Source: Bordetella genomosp. 1 (GTDB lineage Bacteria; Pseudomonadota; Gammaproteobacteria; Burkholderiales; Burkholderiaceae_B). From it: a DNA stretch of 64,000 nucleotides. A model generated the notes under the pieces. It saw only the letters and a program-made list of their open reading frames with translations, made no database searches and had not been told where the DNA came from. Location of the stretch: the NCBI RefSeq assembly GCF_002261335.1, contig NZ_NEVL01000003.1, positions 1,488,001 through 1,552,000 of the forward strand. The letters are read 5' to 3'. Of this stretch, positions 1 to 10,287 are shown piece after piece (the stretch's first letter is position 1; each line of letters starts with the position of its first letter). Made by a program: the position numbers and the translations under genes.

Positions 1-563
1 TGTTCATCCCGCCGGCGGTGCGACTCGGCCTCGTGGCCGAGTGCGACCTCGAGGCCGTGGCGCTGGGCCTGGCGTGGCTGGATGAACATCCGGGCGAGCT
101 GGCGGTGCGCATCGCCCTGCCCTCGCTGCGCAGCCCCGCCTTCCTGACCCACCTGGCCGACCGGCTCGAGGCGCAGCCGGCGCTGGCCGCGCGACTGTTC
201 GTCGAGGTAGACGCGCACGGCCTGGTCGAGGCGCCGCAGGACGTCGCCGCCCTGGGCCGGGTGCTCAACCATGCCGGCGCGCGGCTGGGCTTGCGCCGCC
301 TGGCCCAGCAGTTCGCCGCCGTGGCGCAGCTGCACACCGTGCCGCTCGCCTATGTAAAGCTGGGCGGCGGCTTCGTGGGCGGCATGTCGCAAAGCCCCGG
401 CAGCCAACAGCTCACGGCCTCCGTGCTGCAGACGGCGCGCAGCCTGGGCATCGAGGTCTACGCGGAGGATGTGCCCGACGCGGCGACGCGCCGCATCCTG
501 TCGGGCCTGGGCATCGACGTCATGCGCGGGCCCGGCGTCATGCCGCAGAACCAGGGCGACTGA
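1..563 (+). CDS. LapD-like degenerate EAL-domain protein, C-terminal part
   Basis: The reading frame is open from the left edge, so the start of the gene lies outside the window and only about 187 C-terminal residues are visible. They match, nearly block for block, the EAL part of the fusion protein encoded at 5052-7823: an RLGLxAxCD stretch, DAHGLV, GARLGLRRLAQQF, PLAYVKLGGGFV. The acidic and lysine residues that coordinate metal and water in active EAL phosphodiesterases are not in the expected places, so this is more likely a cyclic-di-GMP binding receptor of the LapD type than an enzyme. The missing N-terminal part, which would show membrane segments and a GGDEF domain, cannot be judged. 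Confidence 0.75.
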   Translation, partial: FIPPAVRLGLVAECDLEAVALGLAWLDEHPGELAVRIALPSLRSPAFLTHLADRLEAQPALAARLFVEVDAHGLVEAPQDVAALGRVLNHAGARLGLRRLAQQFAAVAQLHTVPLAYVKLGGGFVGGMSQSPGSQQLTASVLQTARSLGIEVYAEDVPDAATRRILSGLGIDVMRGPGVMPQNQGD

Positions 564-604: not shown

Positions 605-725
605 TGCCTCGTGCCGGTCCCTTGTGCCGGTGCCTTGTGCCGGCGCGCCTGCGGCCACCCTGCGGACGGCCCCCGCTCGCCCCCCGCTCGCCCCCCGCTC
701 GCCCCCCGCTCGCCCCCCGCTCGCG
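605..725. repeat. short GC-rich tandem repeats in an intergenic region
   Basis: The 359-base gap between the EAL gene and the phasin-like gene holds no convincing gene. It contains three 13-base units ending in TTGTGCCGG or close variants (605-643), then four full and one partial 11-base units of GCTCGCCCCCC (675-725). Further copies of CCCCCTGCGCGCGCC-like sequence follow to about 816. Several long frames cross the region but are only a by-product of the repeats. Confidence 0.8.
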
Positions 726-922
726 CCCCGATTGCCGCCCCCTGCGCGCGCCACCCTGCGGGTGCCCCCGCGGGCGCCCTCTGCAGGCCCCCTGCAGTCG
801 CCCCCTGCGCGCGCCCCGTCCGGCACGGCGCTTGCGTGGCGAGCCTGCCCCGCCCGCTCGCGGCGGCGCCGGCGCAATCGTGCCCCCGGCGCAGGCCCGG
901 GCGGCTCACCGAGGAGCTCCCC

Positions 923-1348
923 ATGGCATCCCGACGCCGCGGCAACGCCGCCACGCTCTCCCGCAACGCCGCCGAGCTCGCGCTCGCCACGCCCCAGGTC
1001 ATGGCGCACCGCCTGGCGCGGCTGGCCCTCGCCGGCCCCACCTGGTCGCCGCGCGACCGCAAGGAATTCACGTTGATGGGCATGGAAAAGGTCGGCGCCT
1101 TCGCGCAGGCCTGGAACGCCATGTTCTGGTCCGGCGTGGTCAGCAGCCAGACCATCGCGATGCAGTACTGGTCGGCCTGCTTCATGCCCTGGCTGGGCAC
1201 GCGCCGCACCGAAGACGTGATGCGGCAATGGCAGCGCGCCGGCCTCACCGCGATGGGCCGTGGCCTGGCGCCGATTCACGCCAAGGCCACGGCCAACGCC
1301 CGCCGCCTGGCCACGACGCCGTTGCTGCCGATCGGCGGCAAGCGCTGA
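923..1348 (+). CDS. phasin-like polyhydroxyalkanoate granule protein
   Basis: A 141-residue protein. The start at 923 is chosen because GAGGAG lies at 911-916 at good spacing and the sequence before it is repeat-rich. It begins with a basic stretch (ASRRRGN), followed by ELALATPQVMAHRL and RDRKEFTLMGMEKVGAFAQAW. This resembles short Burkholderiales phasins, helical proteins that coat polyhydroxyalkanoate granules and carry a similar TPQVxAHR segment. No catalytic motif is visible. It ends 5 bases before a hairpin shared with the convergent M48 gene. Assignment is from recalled family similarity. A general stress or granule-associated role is inferred. Confidence 0.6.
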   Translation: MASRRRGNAATLSRNAAELALATPQVMAHRLARLALAGPTWSPRDRKEFTLMGMEKVGAFAQAWNAMFWSGVVSSQTIAMQYWSACFMPWLGTRRTEDVMRQWQRAGLTAMGRGLAPIHAKATANARRLATTPLLPIGGKR

Positions 1349-3430: not shown

Positions 3431-4804
3431 TTATGACACCGACGCCGCCAGAATCCGTATCTGGTGGGCCGGCACGGGCCGGCCGAGCAGGAATCCCTGC
3501 ATGTAACGGCAGCCCATGCGGCTCAGGATGTCGCGCTGGGCCTCGGTCTCGACGCCCTCGGCCACCACCATCAGGCCCAGGGCCCGGCACATGCCCATCA
3601 GGGCCGACACCAGCTCCTGGCTGACCACGTCCGACTCGATCTCCGCCACGAAGCCGCGGTCGAGCTTGACCCAGTCGATCGGCAGGCGGCGCAGGTGCGT
3701 GAGGCTGGAGTAGCCGGCGCCGAAGTCGTCGAGCGCCACCTGCACGCCGCGGGCGCGCAGCGCATTGAGGGTGGCGACGTGGCGTTCGTATTGCAGGATG
3801 AAGACCGACTCGGTGATCTCGAGCACGAGGCGATGCGGCGACAGCCGGCTGTTGGCCAGCACGTGCGCCACCTGCAGCGGCAGCTCGTCGGCATACATCT
3901 GGCGCACCGACACGTTCACGTGCAGGATCCACGACGCCGGCCAGGTGACGGCGCGGGCGCAGGCCGTCTCGAGCACCCACGCGCCCAGCGCCACGATCAG
4001 CCCGGTGCGTTCGGCCAGCTCGATCACCACCAGTGGCGACACGTCGCCATGCACCGGATGGTGCCAGCGCAGTAGCGCCTCGCATCCCTGTATCACACCG
4101 GAGTCGGTGTCGCAGACGGGCTGGTAGTGCACCTCGAACTGATCCATCGACGACGAGGCCAGCGCCACGCGCAGGTCGTGTTCGAGGCCCTGGAAATGAC
4201 GCTGGCGCTCCAGCATGGCCGGCTCGAACAGGTTCCATGCCGGGCCGCCTTCGTCGAGCTGCAGCATGGCGATGTGCAGGCTGCGCTCGAGTTCGTCGAA
4301 GTCGGCGCCGTGCTCGGGATAGAGCGCGGCCGACAGCCGGAAGCCCACGATCAGGGGTTGCCCGCGCAACTCGTAGGGCCAGGACAGCTGTTCGAGGATG
4401 TGCGGCGCGAGCTCGGCGATCTGCCAGGCCTCGACGTCGGGCGCCCACACCATGAAGGAATCGGTGGAGTAGCGCGCCACCAGAAAGTCGTCGGAGAGCT
4501 CGTGCAGGCGCTGCGCGACCATGGCGAGCAGGGTCTTGTTGTCGGCCATGTTGAGCATGGCCGACAATGACGGGTGCTGGATCAGCTTGACCAGCAACAC
4601 GGTATCTTGCGTGGCGATGGCGCCGCTGCGGCGCATGCTGCGCTCGACTTTCTGGCGCAGTGAGTCGGGCGTGAGCGCGCCCGTAAGCGAATCGCGCGCC
4701 AGGCGGCGACGCAATCGATACTCTCTACATACAAAGAAAATCAGTGTGGCGGCAAAAGCCACTCCCGGCAGCAGACTCTGTCCCACCAGGTCATCCAATC
4801 CCAC
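3431..4804 (-). CDS. EAL-domain cyclic-di-GMP phosphodiesterase with degenerate GGDEF
   Basis: A 457-residue protein with one N-terminal membrane segment (about residues 9-27). A GGDEF-like domain follows whose signature has decayed to STDSF (113-117), so it should not make cyclic-di-GMP. The C-terminal EAL domain looks active: EALLRW with E242, [24 protein letters not shown], and AEGVETEAQ are all present. It should hydrolyse cyclic-di-GMP to pGpG at the inner membrane. The gene is divergent from the receptor-kinase fusion at 5052 and just upstream of aroC. Substrate control by the degenerate domain (for example GTP binding) is a known theme in the family but not visible here. Confidence 0.93.
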
Positions 4805-5051: not shown

Positions 5052-7823
5052 ATGCCTTTGCTCCCACGTCTCGCCCGGGCGGTGCTGCCTCCGCTGCTCG
5101 CCCTCTGGATCGGCGCACAAGCGCTCGGCGCCTGGTCCGGCTGGCGCATCGCGCTCGATGGCCAGCGCGAGCATGCCGACCTGATCGCACGCGCTTACGC
5201 CACGGTGCTCGATCAGGGCGCCGCGCCCGCCGCTGCCGCGCCGCGTCTCGCCCTGCCGCAGGGCATGAGCGTGGCCATCTTCGAGAACGAGCGCCTCGCG
5301 CTCACGCTGCCCGACACGGCGGCCTCGGCCACCCGCACCCTTGCCCGCGCGCCCTGGCGCAGCGCGGACGGCGCGCGCCAGGGCGAGGTGGTGGTGGGCG
5401 CCCTGCCCCTGGCGCCGCCGCCGGCGCTCTGGCACGCGGCGGGCCTGCTGCTGTTGCTGGGCGTGGCGGCCGCCGCGTGGCTGCTGTGGAATCTGCGCGC
5501 CGGCCGCCGGCGCTGGCAAGCGGGCCCGGTGGCCCGGCTGGCCGAACACGTGCGCCAGGCCGGCAGCCAGGCCGCCGCAGGCGATGAGCGCGGCGACTTC
5601 GGCGCCGTCCACAGCGCGCTCGACGAGCGCGACGCCCAGCATCAACGCCAGCTCGCGGAGCGCGACGAGCGCATCGCGGCCCTCGAAAACGAAGCCCGCT
5701 ACGACGCCGTCACGCGCCTGATGAACCGGCGCGTGTTCTTCGACGTGTTCCGCAATGCGCTGCGCGCGCCGGGCCAGGGCAATCCGGCCGGCCACGTGCT
5801 GATCTTCCGCCAGCGCGACATGGCAGAGATCAACCGCCACATGCATCACGAGGCCACCGATCAATGGCTGCGCCTGACCGCCACGCACCTGAGCCAGACG
5901 CTCAGCAGCAACGGCGGCGTCGGCAGCATGCTGGCGCGCATCAACGGCTCGGACTTCGCCGCCCTGCTGCCCGACGGCAGCGGCCGGGCCGCGCGCGAGC
6001 TGGCCGAACACATCCGGCGCGAGCTGCGGCTGCGCCGCCTGCCGCTCAAGACCGGCCAGTGGTGCCGCTGGGCGCTCGCGCTCACCGCCTATCGCGCCAA
6101 CGAGCAGGTCGGTACCGTGCTCGCCCGCCTGGATCACGCGCTGATGCGCGCCGAGATCTCCAACAGCGACGAGCTGCAGCTCGCCGACGACAGCAGCGCC
6201 ACGCGCGTCGACGGCGAATACAGCTGGCAGGACATCCTGGTGCGCGCGCTCGAAGAGCATCGCTTCTTCCTGCGCCGCGAGACCCGCCGCGACACGCTCG
6301 GCAACGTGATGCACTACAAGGCCACCCTGTGGCTGCGCGATCCCGGCGCGACCGAGCCGATCCATTCGTCGCAGTTCATGCCGCCGGCCAGCCGCCTGGG
6401 CCTGGCCGCCGACTGCGACATCCAGTCGGTGCGGCTGGCGCTCGACCAGCAGGTCGGCGCGCCGGGCGAGCTCGCGGTGCAGCTGGCCCCCGCCTCGCTC
6501 GATCAGCCCTCGTTCCGCCAGCGCCTGCGGCGCCTGCTCGAAGACCGGCCGGCGCTGGCGCGCCGCCTGGTGCTCGAGATCGATGCGCACGGCCTGGTCG
6601 ATTACTTCGAGGGCGTGCAGGCGCTGTGCGAGATCGCCGCGTCGGCGGGTGCGCGCGTGGGCGTGCGCCGTCTGTCCGAACAGTTCGCCGCGCTCGAGCG
6701 CCTGCACCAGTTGCCGCTGGCCTATCTGAAGATCGGCGGCAGCTTCGTGCACAGCCTCGCCGCCAGCCCCGGCAACCGCCATCTCGCCGCCACGGTCGCG
6801 CAGACCGCGCGCACGCTGGGCGTGCCCGCGTACGCGCAGCACGCCCCCGACCAGGCCATCCGCGAGTTGCTCGGCTCGCTCGGCTTCGTCGTGCTCGAGG
6901 CCGAGGAGATCAACGAATCCACGCTGCACGCGCTCGACGATGAAGACGAGATCGAGGCCGCGCCGCCCGCCGCCGACACGCTGGCCGTGCACGCACCGGC
7001 GGCCGACGGCGCCGGGGCCGGCAGCGGCGAGGCCGCGTTGCCCGCCTGGCCGCTGAGCGGCAGCGGCGTGTCGCGCAAGCGCCAGGAGCAGGCCGACCAG
7101 CGCCTGTCGGAGCTGGCGGGCGCGCTGCAGGCGCAGCGCCAGATGCACTCGCTGCTGTCGCACGAGCTGCGCACGCCGGCCGCCACCATCAGCGCCGCCG
7201 CGCAATCGCTCGAGACCATCCTGGCCGGCAGCGGCCAGGAGGTCGACAGCCGGCTCGCCCGCATCCGCCGCGCGGTAACTCGCATGATCGACATGCTGGA
7301 CACGGTGCTCAGCCCGCAGCGCCAGCACGACCAGGCGCTCACGCCGCGCCCCGAATCCTGCGACCTGGGCGAGCTGGTGCGCGAGACGGCCGCCAGCATC
7401 CAGCCCGACACCGCGCACCTGCTGGTGGTCAACACCGAGCCGCACGTGCCGGTGCTGTGCGACCCGCTGCTGACCGGGCTGGTGCTGCGCAACCTGATCC
7501 AGAACGCGATCAAGTATTCGCCGGCCGACAAGTCGATCCAGATCGACGCGGGGCTGTCGAGCGGCGCGCATGGCGCGCTGGCCTGGCTGGCCGTGACCGA
7601 CCAGGGCAGCGGCATCGACGAGGCCGACGCCGAGCAGATCTTCGAGCCGCACTTCCGCCGCGCGGCCCATCGCGAGACGCCGGGCAGCGGCCTGGGCCTG
7701 CACCTGGCGCGCCAGATCTGCATCAGCCAGGGCGGCTCGCTGACCGTGCAGACCCAGCCCGGCCAGGGCGCCCGCTTCGTGATCGCCCTGCCCACGCCGG
7801 CGGCGGCCGGCCGGCGCGGCTGA
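5052..7823 (+). CDS. LapD-like degenerate GGDEF-EAL receptor fused to a histidine kinase
   Basis: A 923-residue membrane protein. Two membrane segments (about 8-28 and 126-148) enclose a periplasmic region of about 100 residues, followed by a HAMP-like stretch. A GGDEF-like domain starts at YDAVTRLMNRR (217-227), but its signature is NGSDF (298-302). An EAL-like domain has KATL (423-426) in place of EAL, and the DDFGAG and EVE-type motifs are gone. This is the layout of the cyclic-di-GMP receptor LapD. After a linker (about 640-690) comes a complete kinase core: LLSHELRTP with His704, N-box RNLIQNAIKYSP (Asn814, Asn818), DQGSGID from Asp850, and PGSGLGLHL. The inferred role is cyclic-di-GMP controlled phosphotransfer, with the convergent regulator at 7891-8628 the obvious partner. 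Confidence 0.88.
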   Translation: MPLLPRLARAVLPPLLALWIGAQALGAWSGWRIALDGQREHADLIARAYATVLDQGAAPAAAAPRLALPQGMSVAIFENERLALTLPDTAASATRTLARAPWRSADGARQGEVVVGALPLAPPPALWHAAGLLLLLGVAAAAWLLWNLRAGRRRWQAGPVARLAEHVRQAGSQAAAGDERGDFGAVHSALDERDAQHQRQLAERDERIAALENEARYDAVTRLMNRRVFFDVFRNALRAPGQGNPAGHVLIFRQRDMAEINRHMHHEATDQWLRLTATHLSQTLSSNGGVGSMLARINGSDFAALLPDGSGRAARELAEHIRRELRLRRLPLKTGQWCRWALALTAYRANEQVGTVLARLDHALMRAEISNSDELQLADDSSATRVDGEYSWQDILVRALEEHRFFLRRETRRDTLGNVMHYKATLWLRDPGATEPIHSSQFMPPASRLGLAADCDIQSVRLALDQQVGAPGELAVQLAPASLDQPSFRQRLRRLLEDRPALARRLVLEIDAHGLVDYFEGVQALCEIAASAGARVGVRRLSEQFAALERLHQLPLAYLKIGGSFVHSLAASPGNRHLAATVAQTARTLGVPAYAQHAPDQAIRELLGSLGFVVLEAEEINESTLHALDDEDEIEAAPPAADTLAVHAPAADGAGAGSGEAALPAWPLSGSGVSRKRQEQADQRLSELAGALQAQRQMHSLLSHELRTPAATISAAAQSLETILAGSGQEVDSRLARIRRAVTRMIDMLDTVLSPQRQHDQALTPRPESCDLGELVRETAASIQPDTAHLLVVNTEPHVPVLCDPLLTGLVLRNLIQNAIKYSPADKSIQIDAGLSSGAHGALAWLAVTDQGSGIDEADAEQIFEPHFRRAAHRETPGSGLGLHLARQICISQGGSLTVQTQPGQGARFVIALPTPAAAGRRG

Positions 7824-7843
7824 CCCGCCCGGGACCGGGCAAG

Positions 7844-7876
7844 AAAAAGCGGCGCCCGCGGGCGCCGCTTTTTTTT
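7844..7876. terminator. strong bidirectional rho-independent terminator
   Basis: A perfect 20-base palindrome (7849-7868) flanked by A's on the left and eight T's on the right. It can end transcription of both the receptor-kinase gene and the convergent response regulator gene. Confidence 0.93.
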
Positions 7877-7890
7877 GAGCTTGCCGCCGC

Positions 7891-8628
7891 TCAGGCCGCG
7901 AACACGTAGCCCTGGCCGCGCACCGACAACACCGGCAGCTTGAAGCCCGCCGATTGCGCCTTGGCGCGCAGCCGGCTGACCATCACGTCGACCCGGCGCG
8001 GTTCGAAATCGTCGGGATTCTCGGGCTGGATGATCTCGGCCAGCACCTGGCGCGTGACCGCCTTGCCGGCGCTGTCGATCAGGGTCATGAGAAAGATGCG
8101 TTCCTGCGCGTTGAGGTGCAGCGACACCCCTTCCGGGCCCACCAGCACCCAGCCGCCTTCCTGCAGCGACCACTGTGCCGAGGGCCGGCCGGCCTCGGCC
8201 ACCGCCTGGCTGGAGGCCGCCGCGGCCGCCGCGCCGCCGCGCGCCAGGCGCATGCGGCGCGCGAGGCTGCGGATCACCGAGCTGAGCTCGAGCAGATCGA
8301 CCGGCTTGGTGAGATAGACGTCGGCGCCGCCTTCCAGGCCGCGCACGCGGTCTTCGAGCGCGCCCCGGCCGGTCAGCATCACGATGCCCATGGGGCTGAG
8401 CGCCCGCAGGCGGGTCGCGACGGAGAAGCCGTCTTCGCCCGGCACGTTGGCGTCGAGGATGACGATATCGCAGGGTTGGGACTGGAGATTGCGGTAGAAC
8501 GACGCCGCGTCCGCGCAATCGAAAACCACATTGAACCCATAGCCACCCAGACCCAGGGCCAACTCTTCGCGAAAGTCTTCATCGTCTTCGAGCAGACCAA
8601 TACGCAACAATCCGTCGGCAGCCAGCAT
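7891..8628 (-). CDS. OmpR-family response regulator
   Basis: A 245-residue protein with an N-terminal receiver domain (acidic pair Asp15/Asp16, phosphorylated Asp59 in VILDANVP, Thr86, Lys108). An Ala-rich linker leads to a C-terminal winged-helix domain with VDVMVSRLRAK and VRGQGYVF. It should bind DNA when phosphorylated. AAGGGGAAG just before the ATG supports the start. It is convergent with the fusion kinase at 5052, with only a terminator between, so that kinase is the likely phosphodonor. This pairing is inferred from position. An inverted repeat upstream of the gene may be its own operator. Confidence 0.92.
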   Translation of the reverse strand: MLAADGLLRIGLLEDDEDFREELALGLGGYGFNVVFDCADAASFYRNLQSQPCDIVILDANVPGEDGFSVATRLRALSPMGIVMLTGRGALEDRVRGLEGGADVYLTKPVDLLELSSVIRSLARRMRLARGGAAAAAASSQAVAEAGRPSAQWSLQEGGWVLVGPEGVSLHLNAQERIFLMTLIDSAGKAVTRQVLAEIIQPENPDDFEPRRVDVMVSRLRAKAQSAGFKLPVLSVRGQGYVFAA

Positions 8629-8787: not shown

Positions 8788-10287
8788 TCAGGAAGAGCAG
8801 CTCACCTCGATGCCGGCGGCCCAGTCGGGCGGCAGCCCGGCATAGGCCTCGAAGCCCGGGCGCGCCTCGAATGGCGCGCGCAACAGCGTGAAGAGCCGGT
8901 CGATCTCGCTGGCGTCGCCCCGCGCCGCGGCGCGGATGGCCTGCTCGGCCAGGTGATTGCGCAGCACATAGAGCGGATTGACGCGGTCCATCGCGGCGGC
9001 CCGCTCGGCGGGCTCGCGCGCCTCCTGCGCGTGCCGCGCCGCCAGCCGCGCGTACCAGGCCTGCGCCGCCGCGCGGTCGATGAACAGGTCAGCGAAGCCT
9101 TGCGGCTCGCCCCGCACCGCGTCGGACAGGCGGCGAAAGCTCAGGGTGAAGTCGGCGTGATGGGTGTCCATCAGCCGCAGCAGGTCATCGAGCAGCGCCG
9201 CGTCGTCGGGCTGCCATTGCGCCAGCCCGAGCTTGGCCGCGATGCGGTCGTGAAAGGCGCTGGTGAAGATGGCCTCGTAGCCGTCGAGCACGCCGCGCAG
9301 CGCATCGGCGTCGGGCACCAGCGTGTGCAGGCTGCTCGCCAGGCGATAGAGATTCCACAGCGCCACCGAGGGCTGGTGGTCCCAGGCATAGCGGCCCTGG
9401 GTGTCGGTGTGGTTGCAGATGTGGTTGAGCGCGAAACCATCCATGAAGCCATATGGGCCGTAATCCAGCGTCAGGCCCAGGATCGACATGTTGTCGGTAT
9501 TCATCACGCCGTGGCAGAAGCCGACCGACTGCCAGCCCGCCATCAGCAGCGCGGTGCGATGCGTGACCGCCTCGAGCAGGGCCAGCAGCGGGCCATGCTC
9601 GCCCGGCGCCTCGCGGCAGGCGGGGTAGAACCGGTCGATCACGTAGTCGGCCAGGATCCGGAGCTGTTCGGGCTGGCGCCGCGACGACCAGTGCTCGAAC
9701 GAACCGAAGCGCACGAAGCTGGGCGCCATGCGGGTCACCACCGAGGCGGTCTCGATGGTCTCGCGCACCACCGGATCGTCGGACACGGTGATGGCCAGCG
9801 CCCGGGTGGTGGGGATGCCGAGGCCCTGCATGGCCTCGCTGGCGAGATACTCGCGCACCGACGAGCGCAGCACCGCGCGGCCGTCGCCCATGCGCGAATA
9901 CGGCGTCATGCCGGCGCCCTTGAGCTGCAGTTCCCAGTTACCCTGCGGACCGCGGACCTCGCCCAGCAGGTGCGCCCGGCCGTCGCCCAGCTGGCCGGCC
10001 CACACGCCGAACTGATGGCCGCTGTAGACCGCGGCCAGCGTGTCGCCACCGGGCAGCGGCGCATGGCCGGACACCACGTCGAGAAAGCGCTGCGTGCCGA
10101 GCTCCGCCGGGTCGAGCCCGATCAGGGCGGCCGCCTCGGTGTTGACGTGCAGCAGGCGCGGCGCCGACGGCGGCCGCGGCTGCAGGCGGGTATAGAAGTC
10201 GGGCGGCAGCGCCGCGAAGCTGTTGTCGGTGCTGAGCTGGTCGAGCCGCAGGCCGGCGGCGGTGGGGGATGTGGATGGCTGGGTCAT
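8788..10287 (-). CDS. selO: SelO-family protein adenylyltransferase (YdiU/UPF0061)
   Basis: A 499-residue pseudokinase-fold protein. Family members transfer AMP from ATP to Ser, Thr or Tyr of target proteins in redox stress responses. Typical segments are YSGHQFGVWAGQLGDGRA, ELQLKGAGMTPYSRMGDGRAV, GFCHGVMNTDNMSILG and DYGPYGFMD, and the C-terminus is EVSCSS, with Cys where some relatives have selenocysteine. The start at 10287 overlaps the stop of the DUF2069 gene as ATGA, indicating translational coupling; the longer open frame upstream is antisense noise. Confidence 0.93.
   Translation of the reverse strand: MTQPSTSPTAAGLRLDQLSTDNSFAALPPDFYTRLQPRPPSAPRLLHVNTEAAALIGLDPAELGTQRFLDVVSGHAPLPGGDTLAAVYSGHQFGVWAGQLGDGRAHLLGEVRGPQGNWELQLKGAGMTPYSRMGDGRAVLRSSVREYLASEAMQGLGIPTTRALAITVSDDPVVRETIETASVVTRMAPSFVRFGSFEHWSSRRQPEQLRILADYVIDRFYPACREAPGEHGPLLALLEAVTHRTALLMAGWQSVGFCHGVMNTDNMSILGLTLDYGPYGFMDGFALNHICNHTDTQGRYAWDHQPSVALWNLYRLASSLHTLVPDADALRGVLDGYEAIFTSAFHDRIAAKLGLAQWQPDDAALLDDLLRLMDTHHADFTLSFRRLSDAVRGEPQGFADLFIDRAAAQAWYARLAARHAQEAREPAERAAAMDRVNPLYVLRNHLAEQAIRAAARGDASEIDRLFTLLRAPFEARPGFEAYAGLPPDWAAGIEVSCSS

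What the first reader, a model, noticed from the sequence alone, without database searches (positions are those of the whole stretch)
5052..8628. LapD-like receptor fused to a histidine kinase, with a convergent response regulator
One 923-residue frame joins TM-periplasm-TM-HAMP, a GGDEF-like domain (NGSDF), an EAL-like domain (KATL in place of EAL), and a complete HisKA/HATPase core (His704, Asn818, Asp850). Both cyclic-di-GMP domains lack catalytic residues, as in LapD, where they bind the nucleotide. A fused kinase would turn cyclic-di-GMP (or periplasmic input) into phosphorelay output, with the adjacent regulator as receiver. I do not know of a characterised system with this architecture.
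Basis: partly seen in the sequence, partly recalled or inferred. Interest (0 to 1): 0.75.

Follow-up and report, generated by a model that had tools for sequence, protein, structure and literature searches.

The report
Bordetella DdpA: LapD-like half plus kinase
This is a Bordetella copy of DdpA, a protein already described, in which a worn-down relative of a biofilm-signal receptor is joined to a sensor kinase that pairs with the regulator gene beside it; related bacteria carry the two halves as separate neighbouring genes, which suggests how the joined protein arose and that the receptor-like half controls the kinase.

Summary
[quoted passage not shown] It is no artefact: 9 of 15 genomes of its genus carry the fusion. 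The genus is Bordetella, and the order regulator-fusion-phosphodiesterase matches BB2108-BB2109-BB2110, so this is DdpA. In print DdpA has "a predicted histidine kinase domain", is needed by the cyclase BdcA, and with BB2108 is called a putative two-component system.

New here: (1) kinase and regulator occur in the same 61 of 268 family genomes; (2) in 52 of these the kinase is a separate gene, just downstream of a LapD-type gene in 12 of 12 loci examined (4-nt ATG overlap in 3); (3) the fused half derives from LapD but lost the LapG-anchoring Trp125 (0 of 38 rows, against 11 of 11 true LapDs); (4) Glu617, needed for c-di-GMP binding in LapD, is lost in 8 of 9 fused proteins, this one included. 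So the LapD-derived half is probably the kinase's input, but direct c-di-GMP sensing by this protein is doubtful.

The parts
5052..7823 (+). ddpA: LapD-like (TM-periplasmic-TM, S helix, degenerate GGDEF and EAL) fused to HisKA-HATPase kinase, 923 aa
5694..6155 (+). degenerate GGDEF (NGSDF, no RxxD I-site), residues 215-368
6237..6890 (+). degenerate EAL (KATLW; Glu617-equivalent is Gln596), residues 396-613
6909..7067 (+). linker between EAL and DHp, roughly residues 620-672; pLDDT under 50 over 633-670; lowest amino-acid identity of the seven pieces in five of the six pairs compared
7134..7796 (+). kinase core: HisKA (His704) and HATPase (Asn818, Asp850, G2 box GSGLGLHL)
7844..7876 (.). GC-rich palindrome flanked by A5 and T8 between the convergent genes: likely bidirectional terminator
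   Evidence: read directly from sequence printed; no terminator scan run
7891..8628 (-). OmpR-type response regulator (Asp15/16, Asp59, Thr86, Lys108), likely partner; position of BB2108
3431..4804 (-). divergent phosphodiesterase PdeB (position of BB2110): degenerate GGDEF, EAL with EALLR, DDFG, AEGVE motifs present
1..563 (+). 3' end of the true lapD (680 aa, L009:8521-10563), preceded outside the window by a LapG-like protease (Pfam Peptidase_C93) and an RTX/VWA/cadherin-like adhesin

Best explanation
This is the DdpA orthologue of a Bordetella species: one membrane two-component sensor whose input module is a duplicated, re-purposed LapD and whose output is phosphorylation of the convergent OmpR-type regulator. 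Shown by sequence: LapD origin, loss of the LapG anchor, intact kinase and regulator, kinase-regulator co-occurrence, unfused relatives. Inferred: the LapD-derived S-helix/GGDEF/EAL module, dimerising and possibly binding a partner such as a diguanylate cyclase, controls the kinase across a flexible linker. The published DdpA-BdcA dependence would be the partner-facing side of the same protein. In relatives with separate genes, LapD or LapD2 would control the kinase in trans; the fusion replaced the kinase's own multi-helix membrane part. Direct c-di-GMP binding by this fused protein is probably lost or altered.
For: Gene order regulator-DdpA-PdeB as in BB2108-2110; nearest relative 76-77% identical over nearly the full length in Bordetella genomosp. 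5. Kinase and regulator in the same 61 of 268 genomes, convergent in 60 of 60 same-contig pairs, within 250 bp in 57 of 61. Two Bordetella genomes (G080, G089) that keep LapD, M48-AroC-PdeB and SelO lack both ddpA and regulator. Separate kinase downstream of a LapD-type gene on the same strand in 12 of 12 loci examined (of 52); 4-nt ATG overlap in 3, and in 3 more a TTG at that spot. DdpA rows form one clade (96/100), on the same side of an 84/93 branch as the g2 LapD2 rows. Kinase boxes intact in 9 of 9. Trp125 in 11 of 11 LapD1 and 0 of 38 LapD2/DdpA rows. Linker disordered in the model.
Against: No biochemistry seen for DdpA kinase activity; the published work I saw (passages of a review) stresses BdcA activation, not phosphorelay. 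A disordered linker is poor for rigid signal transfer. In 6 of 12 loci the kinase frame's first possible start lies 51-194 nt past the LapD stop, so tight coupling is not general. Fusion and neighbourhood show association, not direction of control. LapD2 as a whole is not one clade. Co-occurrence counts are not independent: 43 of the 61 genomes are one genus.
Confidence: 0.6

Rival explanations
1. c-di-GMP-gated kinase: the EAL domain binds c-di-GMP as in LapD and switches phosphorylation of the regulator.
For: LapD ancestry; Glu531- and Lys581-equivalents kept in 8 of 9 and 9 of 9 DdpA; one fused protein (G084) and all 23 g2 LapD2 rows keep Glu617; the 11 true LapDs of this family lack Arg450 too, yet Bordetella LapD is reported to act in a c-di-GMP-dependent way.
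Against: Glu617 is Gln here and lost in 8 of 9 fused proteins; E617A severely reduces c-di-GMP binding in LapD. Phe566 is Leu in 3 of 9. No I-site.
Confidence: 0.2
2. Scaffold only: DdpA works as an activator of diguanylate cyclases; the kinase is vestigial or does unrelated work.
For: Published dependence of BdcA on DdpA, compared by the review to GcbC-LapD.
Against: All kinase boxes intact in 9 of 9, DHp 84-99% identical in the six pairs compared; regulator always found with the kinase; B. pertussis is said to keep DdpA without BdcA.
Confidence: 0.15
3. Assembly or frameshift artefact joining two genes.
For: Separate genes exist in relatives; in two g9 loci (L046, L054) the LapD2 and kinase frames are in phase with a single TGA between them.
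Against: Same fusion in 9 of 15 genomes of the genus, the other eight 52-78% identical to this one, without stops.
Confidence: 0.01

Closest known systems
DdpA (BB2109 of B. bronchiseptica, BP1092 of B. pertussis)
   Same: Degenerate GGDEF and EAL plus predicted histidine kinase domain, membrane protein, next to a response regulator (BB2108) and PdeB (BB2110); review and paper passages seen.
   Different: Here it starts about 4.5 kb past the end of an intact adhesin-lapG-lapD cluster; locus numbers put them apart in B. bronchiseptica (BB1184 and BB2109). I could not compare with the BB2109 sequence by name.
LapD (P. fluorescens, 3pjw/3pjv)
   Same: TM-periplasm-TM, S helix, degenerate GGDEF-EAL; 1.7e-31 to 3pjw over 203-612.
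   Different: No Trp125, no Arg450, no Glu617, no detectable LapD_MoxY_N domain, and a kinase at the C terminus.
SgmT/DigR (Myxococcus xanthus)
   Same: A histidine kinase with a GGDEF domain that serves as c-di-GMP receptor, paired with a DNA-binding regulator (abstract only).
   Different: SgmT is GAF-kinase-receiver-GGDEF and an orphan; its abstract names no EAL domain and no link to LapD.
GcbC-LapD partnership
   Same: A LapD-type protein interacting with a diguanylate cyclase (passages).
   Different: No kinase.

Membership tests
DdpA | Degenerate GGDEF and EAL plus histidine kinase in one membrane protein | tested here: met
DdpA | Gene between a response regulator and PdeB in Bordetella | tested here: met
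   window order against BB2108-2110
DdpA | Sequence orthology to BB2109/BP1092 | tested here: inconclusive
   no named copy held; G084 has the fusion and no second match at E<=1e-60, as expected if it is B. pertussis, which the review says lacks LapD, but its name is inferred
DdpA | Needed for BdcA activity | not testable with these tools
   bench phenotype
LapD | LapD_MoxY_N periplasmic domain | tested here: not met
   5.7e-36 in own true LapD, none in DdpA
LapD | Trp125 LapG anchor | tested here: not met
   Ala at that column here; W in 11 of 11 LapD1
LapD | Glu617 for c-di-GMP binding | tested here: not met
   Gln here; importance
LapD | NCBIfam NF045673 curated cut-off | tested here: not met
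   175 bits against 1020; the own true LapD was not run against NCBIfam as a control
HisKA sensor kinase with OmpR-type partner | H, N, G1, F, G2 boxes and a complete receiver-wHTH partner | tested here: met
HisKA sensor kinase with OmpR-type partner | Phosphotransfer between the two | not testable with these tools
   needs purified proteins

The most novel reading that the evidence does not exclude
A LapD receptor was recruited as the input subunit of a two-component kinase. In both g38 genomes the canonical LapD gene, next to lapG and an adhesin, overlaps the kinase gene by 4 nt (ATGA), so one receptor could both hold the adhesin protease and report the attached state to transcription. Duplication then freed one LapD from protease work (Trp125 lost), and in Bordetella it replaced the kinase's own membrane sensor by gene fusion, later losing c-di-GMP binding.
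Probability: 0.4. Interest if true: 0.65.

Novelty: new member of a known kind. Interest (0 to 1): 0.42.

Why it matters
DdpA is described in print as needed for a cyclase, with its kinase domain only predicted. The comparative data say that kinase and neighbouring regulator are a conserved pair, that the c-di-GMP-receptor-like half is a separate, adjacent protein in the relatives examined, and that its binding residue is gone in most fused forms. That makes the open question of what DdpA senses and does directly testable, and gives a traceable case of a biofilm receptor becoming a kinase sensor.

Tried and rejected
Rejected: sequencing artefact (9 of 15 genomes share the join). Rejected as proven: c-di-GMP gating. 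Tried: a conserved operator upstream of the regulator; only a promoter-like GGTARAATTT-type stretch common to most of the nine Bordetella sequences appeared, nothing I would call a binding site. Tried: relatives in the wider order; 4 of a sample of 399 genomes matched at E<=1e-75, all from the own family, and the separate kinase of G216 gave the same four at E<=1e-40; these thresholds would miss distant cases. Named relatives from genome contigs: 4 loci, only one close. Hydropathy script stopped on one row and was rerun for the remaining rows; it counts segments in the whole open frame, so it is rough. First pass of LapD2 extraction read some loci on the wrong strand; the counts come from the corrected run, in which one g2 genome (G037) appears twice, so 23 g2 rows are 22 genomes. 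Dropped before that count: L019 and L030, the same genomes as L045 and L044. On checking, I withdrew a first wording of a 4-nt overlap in 6 of 12: only 3 have ATG there (L053, L060, L061; L060 also has an earlier in-frame GTG), 3 have TTG (L045, L065, L066), and 6 have none. One search prints frames of 1000 and 1491 aa for G102 and G104; these equal LapD2 frame plus TGA plus kinase frame, so I count them as unfused. Fold comparison could not be run. Papers: passages only of PMC12805831, PMC11537037, PMC12004968, PMC5231407, PMC3032545, PMC1965479, PMC11019879, PMC8076611, PMC4933386; passages and one section of PMC3032553; abstract and section list of PMC3509222; Belhart 2019 and Debandi 2024 not seen, known through the review. 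No print report of the unfused relatives or of the fusion event was seen in the listings; the library is open-licence papers only.
Full report
What is there. The 923-codon frame 5052-7823 is intact and carries GGDEF (215-368), EAL (396-613), HisKA (695-757) and HATPase_c (807-915). The best curated relative is LapD, over 195-612, at 175 bits against a cut-off of 1020. The convergent gene 7891-8628 is a receiver-winged-helix regulator with the usual acidic pair (Asp15/16), Asp59, Thr86 and Lys108. Between the two 3' ends lies a GC-rich palindrome with A and T tracts that looks like a two-way terminator (read). The AlphaFold2 model (mean pLDDT 82, pTM 0.42) has one long N-terminal helix, a small periplasmic alpha/beta piece, a second membrane helix, a helix at 184-216 where LapD has its S helix, then GGDEF, EAL, a disordered stretch 633-670, a long helical hairpin and the ATPase domain. 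Pfam finds no HAMP. Upstream lie, by Pfam, a LapG-type protease (Peptidase_C93), an RTX/VWA adhesin, the true LapD, an M48 peptidase, chorismate synthase and PdeB; downstream SelO.

Not an artefact. Among 268 family genomes, 9 of 15 in the same genus carry the full-length fusion (913-972 aa frames, no stops; the other eight 52-78% identical to this protein). Kinase boxes are intact in 9 of 9 and, in the six pairs compared out of 36, DHp identity is 84-99% while the linker is 32-71%.

Name. The closest named relative is Bordetella genomosp. 5 AU14646. A 2025 review describes DdpA (BB2109, BP1092 in B. pertussis): degenerate GGDEF and EAL, a predicted histidine kinase domain, needed for activity of the cyclase BdcA in B. 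bronchiseptica; its deletion in B. pertussis alters virulence-factor expression and intracellular survival (primary papers not seen). [quoted passage not shown] The window has the same order, regulator - DdpA - phosphodiesterase. BB2108 is listed as repressed in the Bvg+ phase (-18 and -39 fold) and bp1091, a regulator gene whose number neighbours bp1092, as repressed by RisA. G084 (4,043,846 bases) I take to be B. pertussis from its size, which I recall, and from its lack of a second LapD-type match; this is inference.

Kinase and regulator as a pair. Searched separately, the kinase part (E<=1e-45) and the regulator (E<=1e-70) hit the same 61 of 268 genomes, in 5 of 43 genera, one match each. 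They are convergent in 60 of 60 same-contig cases and within 250 bp in 57; exceptions are G020 (3.5 kb), G215 and G216 (1.1 kb), and G014 (different contigs). Two Bordetella genomes, G080 and G089, retain LapD, M48-AroC-PdeB and SelO but lack both ddpA and regulator. Because 43 of the 61 are one genus (g2, probably Achromobacter by size and number, unnamed here), these counts are not independent.

Origin of the fusion. In the other 52 genomes the kinase is a separate gene; I examined 12 of these loci. A LapD-type gene lies immediately upstream on the same strand in 12 of 12. The kinase frame overlaps the LapD stop by 4 nt with ATG in 3 (G171, and both g38 genomes) and has a TTG at that spot in 3 g2 loci; in the other six its first possible start lies 51-194 nt downstream. 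In two g9 loci the two frames are in phase with one TGA between them. The separate kinase has its own hydrophobic N-terminal part, 2-6 segments by a rough hydropathy count; Pfam named it in none of the four run. In 10 of the 12 the upstream LapD lacks Trp125 ('LapD2'); 9 of those 10 genomes have a further LapD-type match, G171 has none at E<=1e-60. In the two g38 genomes the upstream gene is the canonical LapD directly behind adhesin and lapG. The order M48-AroC-PdeB / LapD2 / kinase / regulator / SelO is shared, with gaps. In a tree of 50 GGDEF-EAL rows the nine fused proteins form one group (96/100) on the same side of an 84/93 branch as the g2 LapD2 rows, while true LapDs form another group (92/96); the outgroup branch is very long, so the root is unsure, and LapD2 as a whole is not one clade.

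What was lost. With numbering checked on 3pjw (S229, E262, R450, F566, A602, E617 all match): Trp125, the main LapG anchor, is present in 11 of 11 LapD1 rows and 0 of 38 LapD2 and DdpA rows (4 have no residue there). Glu617 is present in 11 of 11 LapD1, 23 of 23 g2 LapD2, 2 of 6 other LapD2, 1 of 9 DdpA. Phe566 is present in 11 of 11, 29 of 29 and 6 of 9. Arg450 is absent in all 49 family rows, true LapDs included, so its absence alone says little. E617A in P. fluorescens LapD shows a severe reduction in c-di-GMP binding. The alignment is gapless around 617. The Pfam LapD_MoxY_N score falls from 5.7e-36 (own LapD) to 1.8e-4, under cut-off (a g2 LapD2), to nothing (this DdpA and two others run).

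Mechanism. Shown by sequence: complete kinase and receiver, conserved pairing, LapD origin, loss of the LapG and c-di-GMP marks. From known families: HisKA kinases phosphorylate OmpR-type partners (general knowledge); LapD EAL domains dimerise on activation. Inferred: the LapD-derived module sets kinase activity through dimer arrangement, probably through protein partners rather than c-di-GMP in this protein; the linker is flexible, so proximity or dimerisation is more likely than a rigid lever. I put the whole chain at 0.6, direct c-di-GMP gating at 0.2.

Verdict. A real and well-read observation, but of a described protein. The comparative history is what adds to it.

Noticed in passing
L009 about 9600-9700 (outside the window, in own lapD): The GGDEF domain of the true LapD holds a run of near-identical short repeats (QTGAV units). 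GGDEF-EAL length is 441-444 in L009, L048 and L052 against 412-420 in the other eight LapD1 rows, so an insert there may vary.
   Followed up: no
L056:12031-13137: In G082 the true lapD matches only as two fragments while ddpA and the regulator stay intact, so DdpA seems not to need a working LapD.
   Followed up: no
L009, L044, L045, L048, L052, L053, L055, L061, L064, L065, L066 (LapD1 rows): All 11 true LapDs examined in this family lack the Arg450 that sits in the c-di-GMP site of P. fluorescens LapD, yet keep Glu617 and Phe566.
   Followed up: partly
window 611-1348: ORF just after lapD whose C-terminal half reminded me of phasins (recalled, by eye) with a repetitive Ala/Pro-rich N-terminal half; Pfam found nothing at E<=0.001.
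   Followed up: partly
literature, PMC8076611: A phosphoproteomics paper lists BP1092 as a response regulator with phosphosites in its DNA-binding domain, which conflicts with BP1092 being DdpA in the review; perhaps a numbering slip for BP1091.
   Followed up: no
window 3431-4804: PdeB, divergent from ddpA, keeps its catalytic EAL motifs; its orthologue reportedly resisted deletion in B. bronchiseptica.
   Followed up: partly
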